Positions 10,401-55,013 of a DNA stretch of 64,000 bases are shown here, one piece after another (position 1 is the stretch's first letter; the number at the start of each line of letters is the position of its first letter). The notes under the pieces are model-generated. The model made no database searches, was not told the DNA's origin, and worked only from the letters and a program-made list of their open reading frames with translations. The DNA comes from Cherax quadricarinatus (taxonomy: Eukaryota; Arthropoda; Malacostraca; Decapoda; Parastacidae). The stretch is from NCBI RefSeq assembly GCF_038502225.1, contig NC_091369.1, positions 13,083,502 to 13,147,501 of the forward strand, in the 5' to 3' direction. The translations under genes and the position numbers were made by a program.

Positions 10401-13400
10401 AACTGGAACAACTTTTATGGCAAACATGATATGTATGCAAGGGATGGGGTACATCTCTCTGGGGCAGGGGTGGTAGCACTTGCAGACTCGATTGAGAAGG
10501 CCATTGGTGAAATGCCTATGATTTTAAACTGATGGAAGATAGAGGTATGGGTGTGTGTGGGAAACAAGCAGGTTGCAACACTAGGGTTGGAAACAGTAAA
10601 TGTATAAAAGGCATTCAGCATGAAGTTATAAATAAAGACAATAGAACAGGTCAGCAAACAAAAGGGGGACAGCAGAGGGCAGCAAGGGACTAGCTCCCTT
10701 AAGGTTTACTATACTAATAGCAGGAGTGTTAGAAATAAGATAGATGAGCTAAGATTAATTGCAAGTGCAGGAAACATAGATATTATTGCTATAACAGAGA
10801 CCTGGCTCAATCTGAAAGATAGAGAGATGCCCTCTGAATGTCACATACAAGGCTATAAATTATTCCACACTGACAGGGTCAACAGGAAAGGTGGTGGAGT
10901 AGCGATGTATGTCAGAGACAATTTAAATTGTTGTGTTAGACAAGATATTAAATTAGAAGCGTCAGCCACTGAATCTGTTTGGTTACAGCTTCTCGAGGGC
11001 CGAGAAAAACTAATTTTGGGTGTGATTTACAGGGCCCCAAATCTTGATAGGGAGTGCAGTAAACTTCTATGGGACGAAATTCGTAAGGCATCTACATACG
11101 AAAATGTTGTGCTAATGGGAGATTTCAACTATAGACAGATTGACTGGAGCAATTTGACAGGAAATTTAGAGTCTGGTGACTTTCTTGATACGATCCAGGA
11201 TTGTTTTTTAAAACAGTTTGTGACAGAGCCAACTAGGGGAAATAACCTCCTTGACTTGGTTCTTGCCAGTAGGGAAACACTAATTAATAATCTTGAGGTT
11301 AATGATGAGCTTGGGGAGAGTGATCACAAATCACTCAGTTTTAACATATCATGGAATTCCCCTAATAATGGCAATCAAGTCTCCGTCCCTGACTTTCGCT
11401 TGGCTGATTTCATAGGACTGAAAAATTACTTAGGTGGGCTGAACTGGAATGACCTGACTAGGGGTCAGGTAGGTGGTGATGGTTGCCGATATGATGCTTT
11501 CCAGGGCATAGTTCTAGCTGCTCAGTCAAATTATGTTCCAAATAGGGAAATCAGATCAAACAAAAATGATCCTAAATGGATGAACAATAGATTAAAATAT
11601 CTGATTGGTCAAAAGAGAGGCATATATAGGCAAATCAAAAGAGGAGAGGGGCAATTAAGAAATCGATATATTCAGTTAAAGAGAGAAATAAAAAAGGGAA
11701 TTAGAAAAGCAAATAGAGATTATGAGGTTAAAGTTGCAAGAGAATCGAAGACTAACCCAAAAGGATTCTTTCAGGTATACAGAAGTAAGATCAGGGACAA
11801 GATAGGCCCACTCAAAAGTTCCTCGGGTCAGCTCACTGACAGTGATAAGGAAATGTGTAGAATTTTTAACACATACTTCCTCTCAGTTTTTACACAGGAG
11901 GATACCAGCGATATTCCAGTAATGATAAATTATGTAGAACAGGACGATAATAAACTGTGCACTATTAGGGTCACAAGTGACATGGTCCTTAGGCAAATAG
12001 ATAAATTAAAACCTAACAAATCCCCAGGCCCTGATGAACTGTATGCAAGGGTTCTAAAGGAATGTAAAGAGGAGCTTAGCACACCTTTGGCTAATCTTTT
12101 CAACATATCACTACAAACTGGCATGGTGCCAGATAAGTGGAAAATGGCAAATGTGATACCTATTTTCAAAACAGGTGACAGGTCCTTAGCTTCGAACTAT
12201 AGACCAATAAGCCTAACCTCCATAGTGGGAAAATTTATGGAATCAATAATTGCCGAGGCAGTTCGTAGCCACCTTGAAAAGCATAAATTAATCAACGAAT
12301 CTCAGCATGGTTTTACAAAGGGGCGTTCCTGCCTTACGAATTTATTAACTTTTTTCACTAAGGTATTTGAGGAGGTAGATCATGGTAATGAATATGATAT
12401 TGTGTATATGGACTTCAGTAAGGCTTTTGACAGGGTCCCACATCAGAGACTATTGAGGAAAATTAAAGCACATGGAATAGGAGGAGAAATTTTTTCCTGG
12501 ATAGAGGCATGGTTGACAAATAGGCAGCAGAGAGTTTGCATAAATGGGGAGAAATCAGAGTGGGGAAGTGTCACGAGCGGTGTTCCACAGGGGTCAGTGT
12601 TGGGCCCCCTGCTGTTCACAATCTACATAAACGACATAGATGAGGGCATAAAGAGCGACATCGGCAAGTTTGCCGATGACACCAAAATAGGCCGTCGAAT
12701 TCATTCTGACGAGGACATTCGAGCACTCCAGGAAGATTTGAATAGACTGATGCAGTGGTAGGAGAAGTGGCAGATGCAGTTTAATATAGACAAATGCAAA
12801 GTTCTAAATGTTGGACAGGACAATAACCATGCCACATATAAACTAAATAATGTAGATCTTAATATTACGGATTGCGAAAAAGATTTAGGAGTTCTGGTTA
12901 GCAGTAATCTGAAACCAAGACAACAGTGCATAAGTGTTCGCAATAAAGCTAATAGAATCCTTGGCTTCATATCAAGAAGCATAAATAATAGGAGTCCTCA
13001 GGTTGTTCTTCAACTCTATACATCCTTGGTTAGGCCTCATTTAGATTATGCTGCACAGTTTTGGTCACCGTATTACAGAATGGATATAAATTCTCTGGAA
13101 AATGTACAAAGGAGGATGACAAAGATGATCCCATGTATCAGAAACCTTCCCTATGAGGATAGACTAAGGGCCCTGAAACTGCACTCTCTAGAAAGACGTA
13201 GAATTAGGGGGGATATGATTTTTTTTTATTTTTATTATCACACCGGCCGATTCCCACCAAGGCAGGGTGGCCCGAAAAAGAAAAACTTTCACCATCATTC
13301 ACTCCATCACTGTCTTGCCAGAAGGGTGCTTTACACTACAGTTTTTAAACTGCAACATTAACACCCCTCCTTCAGAGTGCAGGCACTGTACTTCCCATCT

Positions 13401-16400
13401 CCAGGACTCAAGTCCGGCCTGCCGGTTTCCCTGAATCCCTTCATAAATGTTACTTTGCTCACACTGCAACAGCACGTCAAGTATTAAAAACCATTTGTCT
13501 CCATTCACTCCTATCAAACACGCTCAAGCATGCCTGCTGGAAGTCCAAGCCCCTCGCACACAAAACCTCCTTTACCCCCTCCCTCCAACCCTTCCTAGGC
13601 CGACCCCTACCCCGCCTTCCTTCCACTACAGACTGATACACTCTTGAAGTCATTCTGTTTCGCTCCATTCTCTCTACATGTCCGAACCACCTCAACAACC
13701 CTTCCTCAGCCCTCTGGACAACAGTTTTGGTAATCCCGCACCTCCTCCTAACTTCCAAACTACGAATTCTCTGCATTATATTCACACCACACATTGCCCT
13801 CAGACATGACATCTCCACTGCCTCCAGCCTTCTCCTCGCTGCAACATTCATCACCCACGCTTCACACCCATATAAGAGCGTTGGTAAAACTATACTCTCA
13901 TACATTCCCCTCTTTGCCTCCAAGGACAAAGTTCTTTGTCTCCACAGACTCCTAAGTGCACCACTCACTCTTTTTCCCTCATCAATTCTATGATTCACCT
14001 CATCTTTCATAGACCCATCCGCTGACACGTCCACTCCCAAATATCTGAATACGTTCACCTCCTCCATACTCTCTCCCTCCAATCTGATATTCAATCTTTC
14101 ATCACCTAATCTTTTTGTTATCCTCATAACCTTACTCTTTCCTGTATTCACCTTTAATTTTCTTCTTTTGCACACCCTACCAAATTCATCCACCAATCTC
14201 TGCAACTTCTCTTCAGAATCTCCCAAGAGCACAGTGTCATCAGCAAAGAGCAGCTGTGACAACTCCCACTTTGTGTGTGATTCTTTATCTTTTAACTCCA
14301 CGCCTCTTGCCAAGACCCTCGCATTTACTTCTCTTACAACCCCATCTATAAATATATTAAACAACCACGGTGACATCACACATCCTTGTCTAAGGCCTAC
14401 TTTTACTGGGAAAAAATTTCCCTCTTTCCTACATACTCTAACTTGAGCCTCACTATCCTCGTAAAAACTCTTCACTGCTTTCAGTAACCTACCTCCTACA
14501 CCATACACTTGCAACATCTGCCACATTGCCCCCCTATCCACCCTGTCATACGCCTTTTCCAAATCCATAAATGCCACAAAGACCTCTTTAGCCTTATCTA
14601 AATACTGTTCACTTATATGTTTCACTGTAAACACCTGGTCCACACACCCCCTACCTTTCCTAAAGCCTCCTTGTTCATCTGCTATCCTATTCTCCGTCTT
14701 ACTCTTAATTCTTTCAATTATAACTCTACCATACACTTTACCAGGTACACTCAACAGACTTATCCCCCTATAATTTTTGCACTCTCTTTTATCCCCTTTG
14801 CCTTTATACAAAGGAACTATGCATGCTCTCTGCCAATCCCTAGGTACCTTACCCTCTTCCATACATTTATTAAACAATTGCACCAACCACTCCAAAACTA
14901 TATCCCCACCTGCTTTTAACATTTCTATCTTTATCCCATCAATCCCGGCTGCCTTACCCCCTTTCATTTTACCTACTGCCTCACGAACTTCCCCCACACT
15001 CACAACTGGCTCTTCCTCACTCCTACAAGATGTTATTCCTCCTTGCCCTATACACGAAATCACAGCTTCCCTATCTTCATCAACATTTAACAATTCCTCA
15101 AAATATTCCTTCCATCTTCCCAATACCTCTAACTCTCCATTTAATAACTCTCCTCTCCTATTTTTAACTGACAAATCCATTTGTTCTCTAGGCTTTCTTA
15201 ACTTGTTAATCTCACTCCAAAACTTTTTCTTATTTTCAACAAAATTTGTTGATAACATCTCACCCACTCTCTCATTTGCTCTCTTTTTACATTGCTTCAC
15301 CACTCTCTTAACCTCTCTCTTTTTCTCCATATACTCTTCCCTCCTTGCATCACTTCTACTTTGTAAAAACTTCTCATAAAGGGGATGTAAATAGTGTGCT
15401 GAAAATATCTAGCCTAGACAGGACTCGCAGCAATGGTTTTAAGTTGGAAAAATTCAGATTCAGGAGGGATATAGGAAAGTACTGGTTTGGTAATAGAGTT
15501 GTGGATGAGTGGAACAAACTCCCAAGTACCGTTATAGAGGCCAGAACGTTGTGTAGCTTTAAAAATAGGTTGGATAAATACATGAGTAGATGTGGGTGGG
15601 TGTGAGTTAGACCTGATAGCTTGTGCTACCAGGTCGGTTGCCGTGTTCCTCCCTTAAGTCAGTGTGACCTGACCTGACTAGGTTGGGTGCATTGGCTTAA
15701 GCCGGTAGGAGACTTGGACCTGCCTCGCATGGGCCAGTAGGCCTTCTGCAGTGTTCCTTCGTTCTTATGTTCTTATGTTCTTATTAACTGCTAAATTCAG
15801 TTGTTCCCTAGGCTTTCTCAGCTTATTACTATGACTCCAAAACTTTTACTTATTCTCATCAAAATTTATTGATAAAGCCTCACTCATTCACTCATTAGCT
15901 CTCCTTTTCCACTCCCTCACCACTTTTTAAACTCTCATTTGCTCTCCACATTCTTTGCCTTTTATACATCCTACATTTTAAAAGGCTCACATAAATTACC
16001 CGCACAAAGCAGACTGAAACTTATGACAACTTTTCACTCCAGATTGGACAATTAACTAGTTACACTAGTGACTAGTTAATAGTCCATAATGTTGTCATAA
16101 GTTTCAGTCTCCTATGTACAGGTTATTTGTGTATCGTTCCTTTTTTTAAGGAGGGGTTTGGGATATTGGCAATTTGGAGGGACGTCTAAGCTGTCGTATC
16201 TGAGCACCTCTGGAAAGACAGTGATTATGTATGAGTGATGGTGGAAGTGTTGAATGATGAAAGTTTTTTCTTTCTTTTTGGGTCACCCTGCCTTGGTGGG
16301 AAACAGCCAACGTGTTAAAAAAAAATTAAAGTACAGTACATTGAATGTGGTATTCAATAAATTTGTTGCTAAGTTCTGTAGTGGTAAAGTGACTTGGAAA

Positions 16401-37211: not shown

Positions 37212-37401
37212 GTTCTAAGAACATAAGAACATAAGAACATAAGAACGAAGGAACACTGCAGAAGGCCTACTGGCCCATGCGAGGCAGGTCCAAGTCTCCT
37301 ACCAGCTTAAGCCAATGCACCCAACCTAGTCAGGTCAGGTCACATTGACTTAAGGGAGGAACACGGCAAACAACCTGGTAGCACAAGCTATCAGGTCCAA
37401 C

Positions 37402-40131
37402 TCACACCCACCCACATCCACTCATGTATTTATCCAACCTATTTTTAAAGCTACACAACGTTCTGGCCTCTATAACTGTACTCGGGAGTTTGTTCCACTC
37501 ATCCACAACTCTATTACCAAACCAGTACTTTCCTATATCCTTCCTGAATCTGAATTTTTCCAACTTAAAACCATTGCTGCGAGTCCTGTCTAGGCTAGAT
37601 ATTTTCAGCACACTATTTACATCCCCTTTATTTATTCCTGTCTTCCATTTATACACCTCAATCATATCCCTCCTAATTCTTCGTCTTTCTAGAGAGTGCA
37701 GATTCAGGGCCCCTAGTCTGTCCTCACAGGGAAGGCCCCCGACACACGGGACCAACCCTGCCATCCTCCTTTGTACATTTTCCAGAGAACCCACATCCAC
37801 TCTGCAATACGGCGACCAAAACTGTGCAGCACAATCCAAATGAGGCCCAACCAAGGATGCATAGAGTTGAAGAACAACCTGAGGACTCCCACCATTCATG
37901 CTTCTTGATATGAAGCCAAGGACCCCACCAGCCCCACTGCGAACAGTTATGCACCGTTGTCCCGGCCTCAGACCACTGCCAACCAGAACCCCCAAATCTT
38001 CCTCGCAATCCGCAACATCAAGATCCACACTATCTAGTTTACATGTGGCACGGTCACTGTCCCGTCCAACATTTAGAACTTTGCACCTGTCCACACTAAA
38101 CTGCATCTGCCACCTCTCCGACCACCGCACCAGTCCACCCAAACCCCCCCGGCGCGCTCGAACGTCCTCGTCAGAATGAATTCGACGGCCCACCCTGGTG
38201 TCATCGGCAAACTTGCCGATGTCGCTCCCTATGCCCTCATCCACGTCGCTCATGTAGACTGCGAACAGCAGGGGGCCCAACACCGACCCCCGCGGAACAC
38301 CGCCCGCGACGCCTCCCCACTCCGACCCCTCCCCACCCATGCAAACTCTCCGCCGCCCACCTGTCAACCACGCCCCCATCCAGGAAAAAACTTCTCCCAT
38401 TCCATGTGCTCCAATTTTCCTCAACAGTCCCCGATGCGGGACCCCGTCAAAAGCCCCACCGAAGTCCATACACACAACATCACACCCACTACCATGATCC
38501 ACCCCCCCAAACACCTCAGTGAAAAAAGTCAACAAATTCGCAAGGCAGGAACGCCCCTCTGCAAAACCACGCTGAGATTCGCCGACCAACCTATGCCCCT
38601 CAAGGCGGCCACGAACCGCCCCGGCAACCATCGATTCCATAAACCCTCCCACTATGGAGGTTAGGCTTATTGGTCTATAGTTCGAAGCTAAGGACCTGTC
38701 ACCTGTTTTGAAAATAGGTATCACATTTGCCATTTTCCACTTATCTGGCACCATGCCAGTTTGTAGTGATATGTTGAAAAGATTAGCCAAAGGTGTGCTA
38801 AGCTCCTCTTTACATTCCTTTAGAACCCTTGCATACAGTTCATCAGGGCCTGGGGATTTGTTAGGTTTTAATTTATCTATTTGCCTTATGACCATGTCAC
38901 TTGTGACCCTAATCGTGCACAGTTTATTATCGTCCTGTTCTACATAATTTATCATTACTGGAATATCGCTGGTATCCTCCTGTGTAAAAACTGAGAGGAA
39001 GTATGTGTTAAAAATTCTACACATTTCCTTATCACTGTCAGTGAGCTGACCCGAGGAACTTTTGAGTGGGCCTATCTTGTCCCTGATCTTACTTCTGTAT
39101 ACCTGAAAGAATTCTTTTGGGTTAGTCTTCGATTCTCTTGCAACTTTAACCTCATAATCTCTTTTTGCTTTTCTAATTCCCTTTTTTATTTCTCTCTTTA
39201 ACTGAATATATCGATTTCTTAATTGCCCCTCTCCTCTTTTGATTTGCCTATATATGCCTCTCTTTTGACCAATCAGATATTTTAATCTATTGTTCATCCA
39301 TTTAGGATCATTTTTGTTTGATCTGATTTCCCTATTTGGAACATAATTTGACTGAGCAGCTAGAACTATGCCCTGGAAAGCATCATATCGGCAACCATCA
39401 CCACCTACCTGACCCTTAGTCAGGTCATTCCAGTTCAGCCCACCTAAGTAATTTTTCAGTCCTATGAAATCAGCCAAGCGAAAGTCAGGGACGGAGACTT
39501 GATTGCCATTATTAGGGGAATTCCATGATATATTAAAACTGAGTGATTTGTGATCACTTTCCCCAAGCTCATTATTAACCTCAAGGTTATTAATTAGCGT
39601 TTCCCTACTGGCAAGAACCAAGTCAAGGAGGTTATTGCCCCTAGTTGGCTCTGTCACAAACTGTTTTAAAAAACAATCCTGGATCGTATCAAGAAAGTCA
39701 CCTGACTCTAAATTTCCTGTCAAATTGCTCCAGTCAATCTGTCTATAGTTGAAATCTCCCATTAGCACAACATTTTCGTATGTAGATGCCTTACGAATTT
39801 CGTCCCATAGAAGTTTACTGCACTCCCTATCAAGATTTGGGGCCCTGTAAATCACACCCAAAATTAGTTTTTCTCGGCCCTCGAGAAGCTGTAACCAAAC
39901 AGATTCAGTGGCTGACGCTTCTAATTTAATATCTTGTCTTACACAACAATTTAAATTGTCTCTGACATACATCGCTACTCCACCACCTTTCCTGTTGACC
40001 CTGTCAGTGTGGAATAATTTATAGCCTTGTATGTGACATTCAGAGGGCATCTCTCTATCTTTCAGATTGAGCCAGGTCTCTGTTATAGCAATAATATCTA
40101 TGTTTCCTGCACTTGCAATTAATCTTAGCAC
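37402..40131 (-). pseudogene. CR1-like ORF2 (endonuclease-RT), open for 909 codons but hypermutated
   Basis: Endonuclease and the first reverse-transcriptase motifs are normal: IDIIAITETWL, LGVIYRAP, MGDFNY, ESDHKSL, KPNKSPGPDEL. From about residue 490 to 810 the protein is shifted in composition: Lys to Gly/Glu/Arg, Asn to Ser/Asp/Gly, Ile to Val/Met, Tyr to Cys, Thr to Ala. Thus YMDFSKAFDRVPH of E1 reads CMDFGGAFDGVPH and GVPQGSVLGPLLF reads GVPRGSVLGPLLF; FADD is retained. One codon is deleted (HGMGEVFSW against HGIGGEIFSW). From about residue 815 (IEVYKWKTGINKGDVNSVLK) the sequence is normal again. The frame stays open because A-to-G changes cannot create a stop codon. The product is very unlikely to be an active enzyme. 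Confidence 0.9.
37709..38660 (-). other. A-to-G hyperedited block in E2
   Basis: Aligned by eye to E1 12220-13185. About 155 A-to-G differences on the sense strand against about 7 other substitutions and one 3-base gap. In 38581-38640 (sense 'atggaatcgatggttgccgg' against E1 'atggaatcaataattgccga') 16 of 23 adenines are changed and none of the 37 other bases. The boundaries are abrupt. E1 has the ancestral state, since it keeps conserved reverse-transcriptase residues. Confidence 0.9.
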
Positions 40132-40168
40132 ATCTATCTTATTTCTTACACTCCTGTTATTAGTATAG

Positions 40169-40338
40169 TGAGGACCTATCTTATCTCTTATTTTTTGTTC
40201 TGTAAACCTGGAAAAACCTTTTTGGGTTAGTTTTCAAATCCCTAGCAACTTTAATTTCATAGTCCCGTTTAGCTTTTCTTATCCCCTTTTTAACGTCCCT
40301 CTTAATGTCAATATACTGACTCATAAGATGACCCTCAC
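40169..40338 (-). mobile_element. Diverged CR1-like fragment fused to the E2 5' end
   Basis: On the - strand it encodes KRGEGHLMSQYIDIKRDVKK, KAKRDYEIKVARDLKTNPKR and FFQVYRTKNKR, the middle of ORF2 (compare KRGEGQLRNRYIQLKREIKK in E1), then meets the start of E2 near 40168. It is a different, older subfamily in the same orientation. Confidence 0.8.
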
Positions 40339-40344
40339 CTCTTT

Positions 40345-40530
40345 TGTGAATCCCTTCAAAAATGTTACTTTGCTCACACTCCAACAGCACATCAAGTCAT
40401 AAAACCACTTATCTCCACTCACTCCTATCTAAAATGCTCACACACACACCTACTGTATGTCTAAGCCCTTTGTACACAAAACCTCCTTCACTCCCTCCCT
40501 CCAACTTTTCCTCAGGCAATCTCCCCATGG
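40345..40530 (-). mobile_element. RTE-like LINE fragment
   Basis: Plus-sense 'gttactttgctcacactcca', 'acagcacatcaagtcata', 'ctccactcactcctatctaa' and 'gtacacaaaacctccttcac' align with RTE-b 13447-13600. It lacks the 3' tail because the CR1-like fragment replaces it at about 40345. Confidence 0.85.
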
Positions 40531-40834
40531 AAAAAAAAAATACCTTTCTTTAATATAATCTAACCTAATGTTACCCAACCTAACTAATAAATTTACAGCT
40601 GGTCTAGGTTAGGTTTGCTTTAATTAGACTGGGTTGTGTTATTAAACTTATCAAAATTTATCTCTTTTTCCTATTTGTTTACAGTATAACTGATTTCATT
40701 GCACAACCCATTTAAGAAGAATTTACATAAATTGTATTCTCATTTTGCCTAAATAAATATTTTCCACAACAAATAACTTTTTTCCCATGCAACAGATATC
40801 ACAGATGTTGTAGATGAATGGTTCAGAGAACCGA
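40531..40834. other. AT-rich spacer
   Basis: No ORF. It contains 'ctaacctaatgttacccaac' and 'ctaggttaggtttg', near-complementary words typical of degenerate taaccta/taggtta runs. Confidence 0.4.
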
Positions 40835-40935
40835 CATGTTGATAAATTAGACACATGTGCAACTCTTGGGTATCTTTACTGAGGAAACGTTTCGCCACAC
40901 AGTGGCTTCATCAGTCCATACATAGGAGAATCTTG
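40835..40935. repeat. Dispersed repeat, 'gaaacgtttcgcc' family
   Basis: 'acatgtgcaactcttgggta', 'tctttactgaggaaacgttt', 'cgccacacagtggcttcatc' and 'agtcc'. The best-preserved copy of this phrase in the window; related phrases at 61740-61800 and 62140-62185. Confidence 0.7.
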
Positions 40936-41380
40936 AAGAACAGGAGGAGAATGAGGCAATCAGTCCCCCAACCCCGAGCCGACGTGCTCAGCCCACCAAC
41001 CCCGAGCAGAACACGGCAGATGAGCGGAGAAGCAGCCCACAAACCGATGATAATGAAGTAAAGATGCGATGGGAAGCGTTTTGATCTGCATAGAGGCTTA
41101 TTAAGTTATCATTATGATTTAATAATGCTTTATCTAGACACTGGAATGACTCAGTGAAGTTTAATACAGAGCGAAACGTCCCAGAGAAGCTTGTACTGCA
41201 ACGCGAAGCTTTTCTGAACTGCATTCTGATGAGGAAACCTTAGAATTGTTGGACGCTGAGAAGTGACGGCAGATAAAGTAATCTTCTAACATAGGATCGA
41301 AGAGTAACTGTATGTGTCGTCTTTTGTTTATCATAATCACGAACGATGGAACAAGGGGAGGGGTTGGATGACTATTATTA

Positions 41381-42719: not shown

Positions 42720-44815
42720 AGTCTTGCAGCAGACAGCATGGGAGTCACAGCAGACAGTACCAACATCTCAGACAGCATGGACGGCACAGACTCCTCAGAC
42801 AGCACAGCAGACATTGCCAACGTCTTAGACAGCATGGACGCACAGCAGACAGTGTCAACTCCTCAGACAGCATGGGCGGCACAGCTGACATTGCCAACAC
42901 CTCAGACAGCATGGACGGCACAACAGACAGTGCCAACTCCTCAGACAGCATGGACGGCACAGCAGACAGTACCAACACCTCAGACAGCATGGAAGGCACA
43001 GCAGACAGTGCAAACACCTCAGACAGCATGAACGGCACAATAGACAGTGCCAACACCTCAGACAGCATGGACGGCACAATAGACAGTACCAATACCTCAG
43101 ACAGCATGGACGGCACAATAGACAGTACCAATACCTCAGACAGCATGGACGGCACAATAGACAGTACCAATACCTCAGACAGCATGGACGGCACAATAGA
43201 CAGTACCAATACCTCAGACAGCATGGACGGCACAGCAGACAGTACCAGCACCTCAGACAGCATGGACGGCACAGCAGACAGTACCAGCACCTCAGACAGC
43301 ATGGACGGCACAGCAGACAGTACCAGCACCTCAGAGAGCATGGACGGCACAATAGACAGTGCCAACACTTCAGACAGCATGGACGGCACAGCAGACAGTA
43401 CCAGCACCTCAGACAGCATGGACGGCACAGCAGACAGTACCAGCACCTCAGACAACATGGACGGCACAGCAGACAGTACCAGCACCTCAGAGAGCATGGA
43501 CGGCACAATAGACAGTGCCAACACTTCAGACAGCATGGACGGCACAGCAGACAGTACCAGCACCTCAGACAGCATGGACGGCACAGCAGACAGTACCAGC
43601 ACCTCAGACAACATGGACGGCACAGCAGACAGTACCAGCACCTCAGAGAGCATGGACGGCACAATATACAGTGCCAACACTTCAGACAGCATGGACGGCA
43701 CAGCAGACAGTACCAGCACCTCAGACAACATGGACGGCACAGCAGACAGTACCAGCACCTCAGAGAGCATGGACGGCACAATAGACAGTGCCAACACTTC
43801 AGACAGCATGGACGGCACAGCAGACAGTACCAGCACCTCAGACAGCATGGACGGCACAGCAGACAGTACCAGCACCTCAGAGAGCATGGACGGCACAATA
43901 GACAGTGCCAACACTTCAGACAGCATGGACGGCACAGCAGACAGTACCAGCACCTCAGACAGCATGGACGGCACAGCAGACAGTACCAGCACCTCAGACA
44001 ACATGGACGGCACAGCAGACAGTACCAGCACCTCAGAGAGCATGGACGGCACAATAGACAGTGCCAACACTTCAGACAGCATGGACGGCACAGCAGACAG
44101 TACCAGCACCTCAGACAACATGGACGGCACAGCAGACAGTACCAGCACCTCAGAGAGCATGGACGGCACAATAGACAGTGCCAACACTTCAGACAGCATG
44201 GACGGCACAGCAGACAGTACCAGCACCTCAGACAGCATGGACGGCACAGCAGACAGTACCAGCACCTCAGAGAGCATGGACGGCACAATAGACAGTGCCA
44301 ACACTTCAGACAGCATGGACGGCACAGCAGACAGTACCAGCACCTCAGACAGCATGGACGGCACAGCAGACAGTACCAGCACCTCAGACAACATGGACGG
44401 CACAGCAGACAGTACCAGCACCTCAGAGAGCATGGACGGCACAATAGACAGTGCCAACACTTCAGACAGCATGGACGGCACAGCAGACAGTACCAGCACC
44501 TCAGACAACATGGACGGCACAGCAGACAGTACCAGCACCTCAGAGAGCATGGACGGCACAATAGACAGTGCCAACACTTCAGACAGCATGGACGGCACAG
44601 CAGACAGTACCAGCACCTCAGACAGCATGGACGGCACAGCAGACAGTACCAGCACCTCAGACAACATGGACGGCACAGCAGACAGTACCAGCACCTCAGA
44701 GAGCATGGACGGCACAATAGACAGTGCCAACACTTCAGACAGCATGGACGGCACAGCAGACAGTACCAGCACCTCAAACAGCATGGACGGTGCAGCAGAC
44801 AGTGTCAGGAGAGAG
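42720..44815. repeat. 39-bp minisatellite with higher-order structure
   Basis: About 53 units of 39 bp ('agcatggacggcacagcaga' + 'cagtaccagcacctcagac'). Variants: 'aatagacagtgccaacactt', 'cctcagagagcatgg' and 'cctcagacaacatgg'. From about 43240 they recur in ordered groups of three or four units. All long ORFs here (up to 731 codons on -, 660 on +) follow from the unit length being 13 codons without a stop. In one + frame the 'caatagaca' variant does create TAG stops. Confidence 0.95.
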
Positions 44816-45364: not shown

Positions 45365-47875
45365 AACACCACCACTTTCTACGCCAATACCACCACTATC
45401 TACGACACCAGCTTCTACACCACCTCCACTATCTACGACACCAGCTTCTACACCACCTCCACTATCTACGACACCAGCTTCTACACCACCTCCACTATCT
45501 ACGACACCAGCTACTACAACACCACCACTATCTAAGACACCAGCTACTACAACACCACCACTATCTACGGCACCAGCTACTACACCACCACCACTATCTA
45601 CAACACCAGCTTCTACACCACCACCACTATCTACACCACCAGCTACTACACCACCACCACTATCTACAACACCAGCTTCTACAACACCACCACTATCTAC
45701 AACACTAGCTTCTACACCACCTCCACTATCTACGACACCAGCTTCTACACCACCTCCACTATCTACGACACCAGCTTCTACACCACCTCCACTATCTACA
45801 ACACCAGCTTCTACACCACCTCCACTATCTACGACACCAGCTTCTACACCACCACCACTATCTACGACACCAGCTTCTACACCACCACCACTATCTACGA
45901 CACCAGCTTCTACACCACCTCCACTATCTACGACACCAGCTTCTACACCACCACCACTATCTACGACACCAGCTTCTACACCACCTCCACTATCTACAAC
46001 ACCAGCTTCTACACCACCTCCACTATCTACGACACCAGCTTCTACACCACCACCACTATCTACGACACCAGCTTCTACACCACCTCCACTATCTACGACA
46101 CCAGCTTCTACACCACCTCCACTATCTACGACACCAGCTACTACAACACCACTACTATCTACGACACCAGCTACTACAACACCACCACTATCTACGACAC
46201 CAGCTTCTACACCACCACCACTATCTACGACACCAGCTTCTACACCACCTCCACTATCTACGACACCAGCTTCTACACCACCTCCACTATCTACGACACG
46301 AGCTTCTACACAACCTCCAGTATCTACGACACCAGCTACTACAACACCACCACTATCTACGACACCAGCTTCTACACCACCTCCACTATCTACGACACCA
46401 GCTACTACACCACCACCACTATCTACGACACCAGCTTCTACACCACCTCTACTATCTACGACACGAGCTTCTACACCACCTCCATTATCTACGACACCAG
46501 CTACTACAACACCACCACCATCTACGACACCAGCTTCTACACCACCTCCACTATCTACAACACCAGCTTCTACACCACCTCCACTATCTACGACACGAGC
46601 TTCTACACCACCTCCACTATCTACGACACCAGCTTCTACACCACCTCCACTATCTACGACACCAGCTTCTACATCACCACCACTACTATCTACGACACCA
46701 GCTTCTACACCACCTCCACTATCTACAACACCAGCTTCTACACCACCTCCACTATCTACGACACCAGCTTCTACACCACCTCCACTATCTACGACACCAG
46801 CTTCTACACCACCTCCACTATCTACAACACCAGCTTCTACACCACCACCACTATCTACGACACCAGCTTCTACACCACCTCCACTATCTACAACACCAGC
46901 TTCTACACCACCTCCACTATCTACGACACCAGCTTCTGCACCACCTCCACTATCTACGACACCAGCTTCTACACCACCACCACTATCTACGACACCAGCT
47001 TCTACACCACCTCCACTATCTACGACACCAGCTTCTACACCACCTCCACTACCTACGACACCAGCTTCTACACCAACTCTACTATCTACGACACGAGCTT
47101 CTACACCACCTCCACTATCTACGACACCAGCTTCTACACCACCTCCACTATCTACGACACCAGCTTCTACACCACCTCCACTATCTACGACACGAGCTTC
47201 TACACCACCTCCACTATCTACGACACCAGCTTCTACACCACCACCACTATCTACGACACCAGCTTCTACACCACCTCCACTATCTACAACACCAGCTTCT
47301 ACACCACCTCCACTATCTACAACACCAGCTTCTACACCACCTCCACTATCTACGACACCAGCTTCTACACCACCTCCACTATCTACGACACGAGCTTCTA
47401 CACCACCTCCACTATCTACGACACCAGCTTCTACACCACCACCACTATCTACGACACCAGCTTCTACACCACCTCCACTATCTACAACACCAGCTTCTAC
47501 ACCACCTCCACTATCTACGACACCAGCTTCTACACCACCTCCACTATCTACAACACCAGTTTCTACACCACCTCCACTATCTACGACACGAGCTTCTACA
47601 CCACCACCACTATCTACGACACCAGCTTCTACACCACCTCCACTATCTACAACACCAGCTTCTACACCACCTCCACTATCTACGACACCAGCTTCTACAC
47701 CACCTCCACTATCTACGACACCAGCTTCTACACCACCTCCACTATCTACGACACCAGCTTCTACACCACCTCCACTATCTACAACACCAGCTTCTACACC
47801 ACCTCCACTATCTACGACACCAGCTTCTACACCACCTCCACTATCTACGACACCAGCTTCTACACCACCTCCACT
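45365..47875. repeat. 33-bp minisatellite encoding Ser/Thr/Pro repeats
   Basis: About 76 units of 33 bp ('tctacgacaccagcttctac' + 'accacctccacta'). Variants: caacacc, cgacacg, accaccacc and gctactaca. The + frame reads STTPASTPPPL without a stop for 871 codons; the - frame reads VDSGGGVEAGV for 898 codons. Mucin-like composition on +, but no signal peptide beyond the translated CTTC tract and no neighbouring exon. Confidence 0.95.
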
Positions 47876-52856: not shown

Positions 52857-54693
52857 GTCTGAATCATACTGTAGCAACATTGTCAGCATCATACTGTAGC
52901 AACATTGTCTGCACCATACTGTAGCAACATTGTCAGCATCATACTGTAGCAACATTGTCAACATCATACTGTAGCAACATTGTCAGCATCATACTGTAGC
53001 AACATTGTCAGCATCATACTGTAGCAACATTGTCAGCATCATACTGTAGCAACATTGTCAGCATCATACTGTAGCAACATTGTCAGCATCATACTGTAGC
53101 AACATTGTCAGCACCATACTGTAGCAACATTGTCAGCATCATACTGTAGCAACATTGTCAGCATCATACTGTAGCAACATTGTCTGCACCATACTGTAGC
53201 AACATTGTCAGCATCATACTGTAGCAACATTGTCAGCATCATACTGTAGCAACATTGTCAGCATCATACTGTAGCAACATTGTCAGCATCATACTGTAGC
53301 AACATTGTCAGCACCATACTGTAGCAACATTGTCAGCATCATACTGTAGCAACATTGTCAGCATCATACTGTAGCAACATTGTCAGCATCATACTGTAGC
53401 AACATTGTCAGCACCATACTGTAGCAACATTGTCAGCATCATACTGTAGCAACATTGTCAGCATCATACTGTAGCAACATTGTCAGTACCATACTGTAGC
53501 AACATTGTCAGCACCATACTGTAGCAACATTGTCAGCATCATACTGTAGCAACATTATCAGCACCATACTGTAGCAACATTGTCAGCATCATACTGTAGC
53601 AACATTGTCAGCATCATACAGTAGCAACATTGTCAGCATCATACTGTAGCAACATTGTCAGCACCATACTGTAGCAACATTGTCAGCACCATACTGTAGC
53701 AACATTGTCAGCATCATACTGTAGCAACATTGTCAGCATCATACTGTAGCAACATTGTCAGCATCATACTGTAGCAACATTGTCAGTACCATACTGTAGC
53801 AACATTGTCAGCATCATACTGTAGCAACATTGTCAGCATCATACTGTAGCAACATTGTCAGCATCATACTGTAGCAACATTGTCAGTACCATACTGTAGC
53901 AACATTGTCAGCACCATATTGTAGCAACATTCTCTGGACCATACTGTAGCAACAATCCTGGACCATACTGTACCAACATTCTCTGGACCATACTGTAGCA
54001 ACATTCTCTGGACCATACTGTAGCAACATTCTCTGGACCATACTGTAGTAACATTCTCTGGACCATACTGTAGCAACATTCTCTGGACCATACTGTAGCA
54101 ACATTCTCTGGACCATACTGTAGCAACATTCTCTGGACCATACTGTAGCAACATTCTCTGGATCATACTGTAGCAACATAATCTGCACCATACTGTAGCA
54201 ACATTCTCTGTACCATACTGTAGCAACATTCTCTGCACCATACTTTAGCAACATTCTTTGGACCATACTGTAGCAACATTCTCTAGACCATACTGTAGCA
54301 ACATTCTCTGGATCATACTGTAGCAACATAATCTGCACCATACTGTAGCAACATTCTCTGCACCATACTTTAGCAACATTCTCTGCACCATACTTTAGCA
54401 ACATTCTCTGGACCATACTGTAGCAACATTCTCTGGACCATACTGTAGCAACATAATCTGCACCATACTGTAGTAACATTTTCTGCACCATACTGTAGCA
54501 ACATTCTCTGCACCATACTTTAGCAACATTCTCTGCACCATACTTTAGCAACATTCTCTGGACCATACTGTAGCAACATTCTCTGGACCATACTGTAGCA
54601 ACATAATCTGCACCATACTGTAGTAACATTTTCTGCACCATACTGTAGCAACATTCTCTGCACCATACTGTAGCAACATTCTCTGGACCAAAC
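52857..54693. repeat. 25-bp minisatellite, two subarrays
   Basis: About 73 units sharing 'catactgtagcaacatt'. Up to about 53925 the variable part is 'gtcagcat' (or gtcagcac); after that 'ctctggac', 'ctctgcac' or 'aatctgcac'. In the second part groups of about eight units repeat (54240-54450 against 54370-54640). Long ORFs on - (252 codons) are artefacts. Confidence 0.96.
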
Positions 54694-55013
54694 TAAAACA
54701 CCAACACTAAACGCTTCCAAGAAAATTGAGCCTAATTTATGTTCAGTTATCTACATGATCTTAACAAGATTACAAGCAGAAACACCGTTTTAAAACGTTC
54801 TAAATATTTATGAAATGTTGTATACGATCTTGCTCCTTATCATGGGAATGTTATTACAGATTAGAACGCGTACACTCAGTAGCCTAGGGACTAGCGCGAG
54901 TATTATATACTAGATCAAGAGATACTGTTACGATCTAATTGAAGATAGAGCAGGAGACTTAACCTTTTTAAGATTACAGTCCCGCAGTGGATTGCCTAAT
55001 ATATCCACATACC

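What the first reader, a model, noticed from the sequence alone, without database searches (positions are those of the whole stretch)
37709..38660. A-to-G hypermutated block in a CR1-like LINE: a genomic fossil of ADAR-type RNA hyperediting
Seen: aligned to the sister copy E1 (12220-13185), E2 shows about 155 A-to-G differences on its sense strand in about 945 bp and only about 7 other substitutions (hand count). In one 60-base segment 16 of 23 adenines are G, and all 37 non-A bases match. Just outside the block the two copies are almost identical (60 of 60 at 38701-38760). Established: ADAR enzymes deaminate clustered adenosines in double-stranded RNA to inosine, read as G by reverse transcriptases; retroelements are templates for new genomic copies by target-primed reverse transcription. 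Inference: the RNA of E2 was partly double-stranded (sense paired with an inverted or antisense copy over just this block), was hyperedited, then reverse transcribed and inserted. APOBEC-type DNA editing gives G-to-A or C-to-T, not this. To my knowledge strand-specific A-to-G clusters fixed in genomic LINE copies are rarely described.
Basis: partly seen in the sequence, partly recalled or inferred. Interest (0 to 1): 0.92.

Follow-up and report, generated by a model that had tools for sequence, protein, structure and literature searches.

The report
RNA editing fossilised in crayfish retrotransposon
A jumping gene in a crayfish genome carries a block where half the A's have become G, most likely because its RNA folded into a hairpin, was chemically edited while double-stranded, and was then copied back into the DNA; the same genome holds other copies with their own edit patterns and an unedited hairpin locus that explains most of where the edits lie.

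Summary
Confirmed and extended. E2 (a CR1-like LINE, sense on the minus strand) differs from E1 in block 37713-38646 by 156 A-to-G changes out of 313 adenines and 6 other substitutions. A is ancestral: an unedited third copy agrees with E1 at 100 of 100 residues changed by A>G alone. Edited adenines show the ADAR context (5' T 0.73, A 0.61, C 0.42, G 0.23). Nine further copies of the lineage in the same genome are edited, with different, non-nested patterns. E2's upstream flank led to an unedited hairpin locus (C1:4369202-4374635): element, spacer, inverted 5'-truncated copy starting at element position 1502; the lineage's edits start at 1508-1516. In copy L065 the opposite arm is edited on its own strand (123 of 221 A). 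Best model: ADAR hyperediting of a hairpin LINE transcript, then retrotransposition. Open: the 3' edge (2448, while the arm runs to 2931), the exact source, host ADAR, and mosaic copies.

The parts
37216..41046 (-). E2 insertion: CR1-like element (37216-40169) plus about 880 bp of source-locus spacer carried along at its 5' side (40170-41046)
   Evidence: window 37232-41046 aligns with C1:4369202-4373021; the 3' end carries TTATGTTC repeats
37713..38646 (-). main hyperedited block (element positions 1515-2448 in E2; 1508-2448 over the lineage), 156 of 313 A changed to G
40938..41046 (-). second hyperedited stretch: part of the 3' half of a near-perfect palindrome in the spacer, 17 of 23 A changed to G (edits at 40957-41040)
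   Evidence: palindrome at C1 folds at -284.4 kcal/mol, z -36
40170..40937 (-). unpaired rest of the carried spacer: 0 of 265 A edited
38647..40169 (-). element positions before 1502, hairpin loop: 0 of 531 A edited against C1
37216..37712 (-). element positions after 2448: 0 of 131 A edited against C1, although the C1 arm covers this part; carries lineage marker substitutions
10632..13220 (+). E1, unedited sister copy used as reference (EN and RT domains; one TAG at 12759)
15375..15784 (+). E1 3' end, separated from the rest by a nested insertion at 13221-15374

Best explanation
A CR1-like LINE sits next to a 5'-truncated copy of itself inserted head-to-head upstream. Its read-through transcript folds into a hairpin: antisense arm, spacer with a small palindrome, element. 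An ADAR-type deaminase edits about half the adenosines in double-stranded parts to inosine, differently in each molecule. The LINE machinery still reverse transcribes such RNA, reading inosine as G, and inserts it, usually 5'-truncated. E2 is one such insertion and also carries part of the spacer. Shown here: the pattern, its polarity, its sequence context, its match to the arm start and palindrome of a real locus, editing of the opposite arm in another copy, and ten differently edited copies of one lineage at eight distinct 3' flanks. Inferred: that the enzyme is ADAR, that the substrate was RNA, that transcription reads through, and that the direct source is a missing allele or paralogue of the C1 locus. 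For the 3' edge (2448, while the C1 arm runs to 2931) I think most transcripts start inside the arm near 2448; a shorter arm in the true source is the alternative.
For: Spectrum and strand. Polarity: P0001 agrees with E1 at 104 of 106 amino-acid differences in the block; 100 of these 106 are due to A>G alone and P0001 has the E1 residue at all 100, and the two where it has the E2 residue are an A>C and an A>T. RVT_1 score falls from 122.7 to 62.4 bits. Context: p 3.8e-9 in E2, likewise in L002-L006 and in the L065 arm. No effect of codon position (p 0.45) or of silent versus non-silent (p 0.59). Same lineage markers, different edits: 3449 of 5671 informative site pairs in 4 full-block copies and 1091 of 1711 in 10 copies are incompatible with nested inheritance. 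L002, L004 and L005 show no inverted partner in the 10 kb fetched around each, which suggests editing before insertion. Hairpin locus: inverted arms 98.4% alike over 1431 bp, arm start at 1502. E2 against C1: 174/468 vs 0/796 with the whole C1 arm counted as paired (p 2e-86), 174/337 vs 0/927 if the arm is cut at the observed edge 2448. L065: 163/294 vs 0/591. The lowest-edited 25-nt bin of 38 (1752-1776, 5 of 36 A) holds the only indel between the C1 arms, 3 nt at 1768 (noticed afterwards, suggestive only).
Against: The C1 locus lacks four of 13 markers of the E2 lineage (2008G, 2215C, 2490A, 2789T) and has private changes, so it is a sister of the source, not the source; no unedited copy with the full marker set was seen among the 30 loci taken or the 15 pattern matches. 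The C1 arm predicts pairing to 2931, but E2 has 0 of 131 A edited after 2448. The edge is not absolute: apart from three lineage markers, A>G after 2448 number 0 in E2, L017, L018, L020 and L022, 1 in L002 and L021, 3 in L004, 4 in L005 and 73 in L003. L003 is a mosaic: identical edit runs with L005 (88 A sites) and E2 (60 A sites), and 4000 of 4000 downstream bases identical to L017. L018 and L020 share both flanks, yet 7 of their 11 differences over 3487 bp are A/G differences inside the element. These fit recombination or assembly mix-ups, but simple independent insertion does not predict them. 3' neighbour preference is not significant in E2 (p 0.175). Host ADAR was not demonstrated.
Confidence: 0.92

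Rival explanations
1. One edited master copy founded a subfamily, and the copies inherited its edits and drifted.
For: Ten copies share lineage markers and many edited sites: 15 of 105 sites are edited in 10 of 10.
Against: Most informative site pairs are incompatible with nested gain (1091 of 1711; 3449 of 5671). Pairwise, 18-35 of 105 sites differ, except E2/L003 (15) and L018/L020 (6). Of the 15 always-edited sites 14 have T or A before the A; of the 19 never-edited sites 18 have G or C before it, as site preference predicts.
Confidence: 0.02
2. DNA-level adenine hypermutation in place (deamination in R-loops or DNA hairpins, or a repeat-induced process).
For: Copies sharing a flank differ in edits (L003/L017, L018/L020).
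Against: L002, L004 and L005 have no inverted partner within the 10 kb fetched, yet their 5' edge matches the arm start of another locus. Changes are on one strand only, which is the transcript strand for both arms.
Confidence: 0.04
3. Assembly or polishing artefact, for example RNA reads used to correct the genome, or mixing between near-identical copies.
For: Mosaic L003, the L003/L017 flank and the L018/L020 differences look like mixing of copies.
Against: Mixing can only shuffle edits that already exist; the ten lineage copies have eight distinct 3' flanks, and L006, L065 and L075 are edited over other extents. One published Cherax quadricarinatus assembly (5.26 Gb) was polished with genomic PE100 reads (PMC10106460, passages seen); G000 (3.95 Gb) differs from it in size, and I do not know how it was made.
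Confidence: 0.02
4. Recombination with an old GC-rich subfamily.
For: Sharp block edges.
Against: Practically one substitution type only; background divergence is not raised in the block (6 of 934 vs 16 of 1523); no second copy with the E2 pattern among the loci taken.
Confidence: 0.005
5. E1, which lies inverted 24 kb away in the same window, was the pairing partner of E2.
For: E1 and E2 are inverted and 92.6% alike over 2.5 kb.
Against: Pairing with E1 would cover element positions 1-2501, but only 1515-2448 is edited and the spacer palindrome is edited too; 15 adenines between the block and the end of the alignment are untouched.
Confidence: 0.005

Closest known systems
ADAR hyperediting (ultra-editing) of repeat RNA, including CR1 in chicken (PMC5625713, PMC3197674; passages read)
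   Same: Clustered A-to-G on one strand in repeats able to form dsRNA, 5' G depleted; in chicken CR1 holds over fivefold more hyperedited sites than all other repeats combined
   Different: Those cases are differences between RNA and DNA; here the edits are in the genome itself, in several insertions
A-to-G hypermutated avian retroviruses (RAV-1, ALV), as cited in PMC8586724 (passages read; originals not read)
   Same: ADAR-type edits found in elements that replicate by reverse transcription
   Different: Viruses, not a germline LINE lineage with a hairpin locus
Editing traces in genomic retroelement sequences, APOBEC type (PMC2873906, passages read)
   Same: Deaminase-type clusters looked for in genomic retroelement copies; that survey also counted A-to-G/T-to-C clusters in human retroelements (129, against 247 of the APOBEC type)
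   Different: Its reported DNA-editing signal is G-to-A; here A-to-G on the RNA-sense strand, tied to a hairpin
CR1-like non-LTR retrotransposons
   Same: APE-type endonuclease and RT domains, 5' truncation, short 3' tandem repeat
   Different: This lineage appears to be transcribed through an inverted copy of itself (inferred)

Membership tests
ADAR hyperediting | At least 12 A>G, over 90% of mismatches, at least 20% of A (thresholds of PMC3197674, passage seen) | tested here: met
   156 A>G, 6 other substitutions (96%), 156 of 313 A
ADAR hyperediting | G depleted 5' of the edited A | tested here: met
   G 17 of 74 vs T 49 of 67; repeated in L002-L006 and in the L065 arm, where G .34 and C .29 are both low. 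In the short palindrome part of E2, 5 of 8 A after G are edited.
ADAR hyperediting | 3' neighbour preference (A in invertebrates, G in mammals; PMC5625713) | tested here: inconclusive
   E2 p 0.175; L006 favours A and G, p 1.6e-4
ADAR hyperediting | Substrate is double-stranded RNA | tested here: met
   Edits lie only in segments that can pair at the sister locus: 174/468 vs 0/796; the pairable part after 2448 is unedited in E2. Both arms edited on their own strand. That the substrate was RNA is inferred.
ADAR hyperediting | Host has an ADAR | tested here: inconclusive
   PF02137 finds one unbroken domain at C18:8525037-8526356; by motifs I recall it looks like the tRNA enzyme ADAT1. A search with an ADAR2 domain did not complete.
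ADAR hyperediting | Inosine or A/G variation in RNA of the locus | not testable with these tools
   No RNA reads available
CR1-like non-LTR retrotransposon | Endonuclease and RT domains | tested here: met
   PF03372, PF14529, PF00078
CR1-like non-LTR retrotransposon | 5' truncation and short 3' tandem repeat | tested here: met
   Truncation at 348-2132 in other edited copies, TTATGTTC-type 3' ends
CR1-like non-LTR retrotransposon | Little or no target-site duplication | tested here: inconclusive
   No direct repeat longer than 6 nt at 10 other loci; E2 was tested there at a wrong 5' end, before the spacer was known
CR1-like non-LTR retrotransposon | Position in the CR1 clade of an RT tree | not tested
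APOBEC DNA editing | G-to-A (or C-to-T) clusters | tested here: not met
   No G>A or C>T in the block against E1
Diversity-generating retroelement | Adenine changed to any base | tested here: not met
   156 of 158 A substitutions are A>G

The most novel reading that the evidence does not exclude
In this crayfish, RNA editing is repeatedly written into germline DNA: self-inverted LINE loci act as standing sources whose hyperedited transcripts keep transposing, so ADAR works as a recurrent, strand-specific mutator of a transposon family (edits over at least three different extents: the E2 lineage with L065, L006, L075), and copies afterwards exchange edited tracts.
Probability: 0.6. Interest if true: 0.94.

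Novelty: new variant of a known kind. Interest (0 to 1): 0.9.

Why it matters
If right, it shows RNA edits becoming heritable DNA and gives a readable record: each genomic copy would preserve the edits of one RNA molecule. From such copies one can measure deaminase site preference, dsRNA extent, transcript ends and the ability of edited LINE RNA to transpose, without RNA data. It would also show that heavy editing does not stop retrotransposition. In my literature searches (open-access full text only; I saw titles and starts of abstracts of the papers listed, only 20 of 54) no title or abstract start describes A-to-G hyperedited LINE insertions in a genome. Two APOBEC surveys that I recall as relevant were not held.

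Tried and rejected
Rejected: G ancestral; old GC-rich subfamily; E1 as partner; APOBEC and polymerase-type error (156 of 158 A changes are A>G); nested inheritance. A letter-collapsed scan of the window for other edited pairs gave 162 rows; of the 40 printed, one is E1/E2 and the others lie in simple repeats. A marker pattern gave 15 places: the 10 edited lineage copies and 5 others that lack the full marker set. An edited twin of the L065 arm was not among the 40 scored matches. Scans of viral and prokaryote contigs for the protein gave nothing usable. A protein search with the edited block gave 25 hits, none closer than the unedited P0001. Searches for the copy number of the L003/L017 flank, for siblings of the L003 tail, with a second marker pattern and for an ADAR gene did not complete. 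A note of mine says E2 stops exactly at the inverted arm; that was wrong, it stops 181 bp short of it. I first took the palindrome arms as 109 bp; the fold shows about 140 bp.

Full report
What was checked. E1 (10632-13220, continuing at 15375-15784 after a nested insertion) and E2 (sense on the minus strand) are two copies of one CR1-like LINE. Between 38646 and 37713, 156 of 313 adenines of E1 are G in E2; other substitutions in the block number 6, with 3 gapped bases.

Which copy changed. The closest protein, P0001 (named Cherax quadricarinatus OTU49_002018; listed at 100% identity to residues 430-860 of E1 with the E1 stop read as Ser, though two residues differ), is a third, unedited copy. 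At 106 amino-acid differences in the block P0001 agrees with E1 at 104. One hundred of the 106 come from A>G alone, and at all 100 it has the E1 residue; the two exceptions are A>C (the E1 stop codon) and A>T. In 141 relatives, E1 has the commoner residue in 90 of 105 differing columns and E2 in 15. The RVT_1 score drops from 122.7 to 62.4 bits. So A is ancestral.

What kind of change. Edited fraction by 5' neighbour: T 49/67, A 60/99, C 30/71, G 17/74 (p 3.8e-9); TAG 15 of 16. Codon position (p 0.45) and silent versus non-silent (33/120 edited, 38/116 unedited, p 0.59) show no effect, so I see no sign of selection. The 3' neighbour is not significant in E2 (p 0.175). Edits clump: like neighbours 186 against 155 expected from the 5' context (sd 8.8), with positive correlation up to about 9 nt.

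Other copies. In the window's genome (3.95 Gb) the block finds five more hyperedited copies, L002-L006, among 41 matches, of which 8 loci were taken. A search with the unedited 3' part of E2 gave 40 matches, of which 30 loci were taken: nine edited copies of this lineage (E2, L002, L004 and L005 again; L017, L018, L020, L021 and L022 new), 20 unedited family copies, and one (L029) dropped for a split alignment. The 20 unedited copies never exceed 4 A>G in 60 successive adenines; the ten edited lineage copies reach 28-41. Four full-block copies (E2, L002, L004, L005) have 151-159 of 311-312 adenines edited, begin at 1508-1516 and end at 2447-2448 in L008 coordinates, yet of 311 sites 71 are edited in all four and 69 in none. 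3449 of 5671 informative site pairs cannot come from nested gain. They share substitutions such as 2008G, 2215C, 2480A, 2490A, 2789T and 2857T, so they come from one source lineage, edited anew in each transcript. The ten copies have eight distinct 3' flanks: L003 and L017 share one, L018 and L020 another.

The hairpin. Of 40 scored matches to the upstream flank of E2 (40170-40800), two besides E2 cover it in full, at C1 and C1935. At C1 lies an unedited locus: element (C1:4372130-4369202), spacer of 1072 bp, and a 5'-truncated copy in the opposite orientation covering element positions 1502-2931 (4373203-4374635), arms 98.4% alike over 1431 bp. E2's insertion runs to 41046 and includes about 880 bp of that spacer. 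Against C1, E2 has A>G at 157 of 314 adenines in element 1502-2448, 17 of 23 in the palindrome part it holds, and none in the rest of the spacer (265), element 1-1501 (531) or element 2449-2929 (131). The last segment lies within the C1 arm: with the whole arm counted as paired the contrast is 174/468 against 0/796 (p 2e-86); with the arm cut at the observed edge it is 174/337 against 0/927 (p 3e-119). The palindrome folds at -284.4 kcal/mol, z -36. At C1935 (L065) the opposite arm is present and edited on its own strand: 123 of 221 A (5' neighbour p 6e-9), palindrome edited with few edits at its tip (3 of 17), unpaired parts 0 of 591. L065 lacks the element after position 962, so it is a broken copy, and that it was inserted as a copy of the RNA is inferred.

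What stays open. The C1 arm runs to 2931 but E2-type edits stop at 2448. I prefer a transcript start inside the arm; a shorter arm in the real source is possible. Apart from three lineage markers, A>G after 2448 number 0 in E2, L017, L018, L020 and L022, 1 in L002 and L021, 3 in L004, 4 in L005 and 73 in L003, so a little editing may occur there. C1 lacks four of 13 E2-lineage markers, so the source is a sister locus or the other haplotype; none was found. L003 is a mosaic (identical edit runs with L005 and E2) and shares its downstream 4 kb exactly with L017, although their edits differ at 35 of 136 sites. L018 and L020 share both flanks and differ at 6 of 106 edit sites. These point to exchange between copies or to assembly errors.

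Other sources. L006 is edited from 369 to 2256 and has only 2 of the 13 E2 markers; L075 has 101 A>G and 4 other changes in the 1037 bp fetched, the last edit at 1248. Their partners were not found.

Enzyme. One unbroken PF02137 domain was found (ORF); its solved relatives by sequence are ADARs, but from motifs that I recall it is more like ADAT1. A direct ADAR search did not complete. So the enzyme is inferred from the pattern.

Literature (passages only). PMC5625713: invertebrate hyperediting shows 5' G depletion, and CR1 is the main edited repeat in chicken. PMC3197674: thresholds that E2 passes. PMC2873906: editing-type clusters in genomic traces, with G-to-A as its DNA-editing signal and A-to-G clusters counted beside it. 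PMC8586724: cites A-to-G hyperedited avian retroviruses. PMC5974252: reviews editing and retrotransposons. PMC10106460: a Cherax assembly polished with genomic reads. No title or abstract start listed or 93 describes edited LINE insertions.

Noticed in passing
L010 (C17) and L017/L061 (C55): L003 and L017 have 4000 of 4000 identical bases downstream but different upstream flanks and different edit patterns.
   Followed up: partly
L003, element positions 1620-1910 and 2075-2227: L003 shares runs of 88 and 60 identical edit sites with L005 and E2, longer than in any of 1000 simulations per pair: a mosaic by recombination or assembly.
   Followed up: partly
L018 (C715) and L020 (C20): Same insertion with the same flanks, yet 7 of 11 differences in 3487 bp are A/G differences in the last part of the edited block.
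   Followed up: partly
L006 (C10:3881592-3885545) and L075 (C90:8304967-8306003): Two more hyperedited copies with other extents, apparently from other sources.
   Followed up: partly
L064:2270-2570: Near-perfect palindrome of about 295 nt in the spacer of the hairpin locus, abutting the inverted arm.
   Followed up: yes
element position 1768: The C1 arms differ there by a 3-nt indel, and editing is lowest in the 25-nt bin around it (5 of 36 A).
   Followed up: partly
window 13221-15374: Another insertion, with a distant LINE-like match in antisense, interrupts E1.
   Followed up: no
window 42798-44803, 45389-47875, 52865-54694: Large minisatellite arrays with 39-, 33- and 25-bp units.
   Followed up: no
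L074 (C18:8524800-8526500): Stop-free frame of 503 aa with a complete A_deamin domain, probably ADAT1-like.
   Followed up: partly
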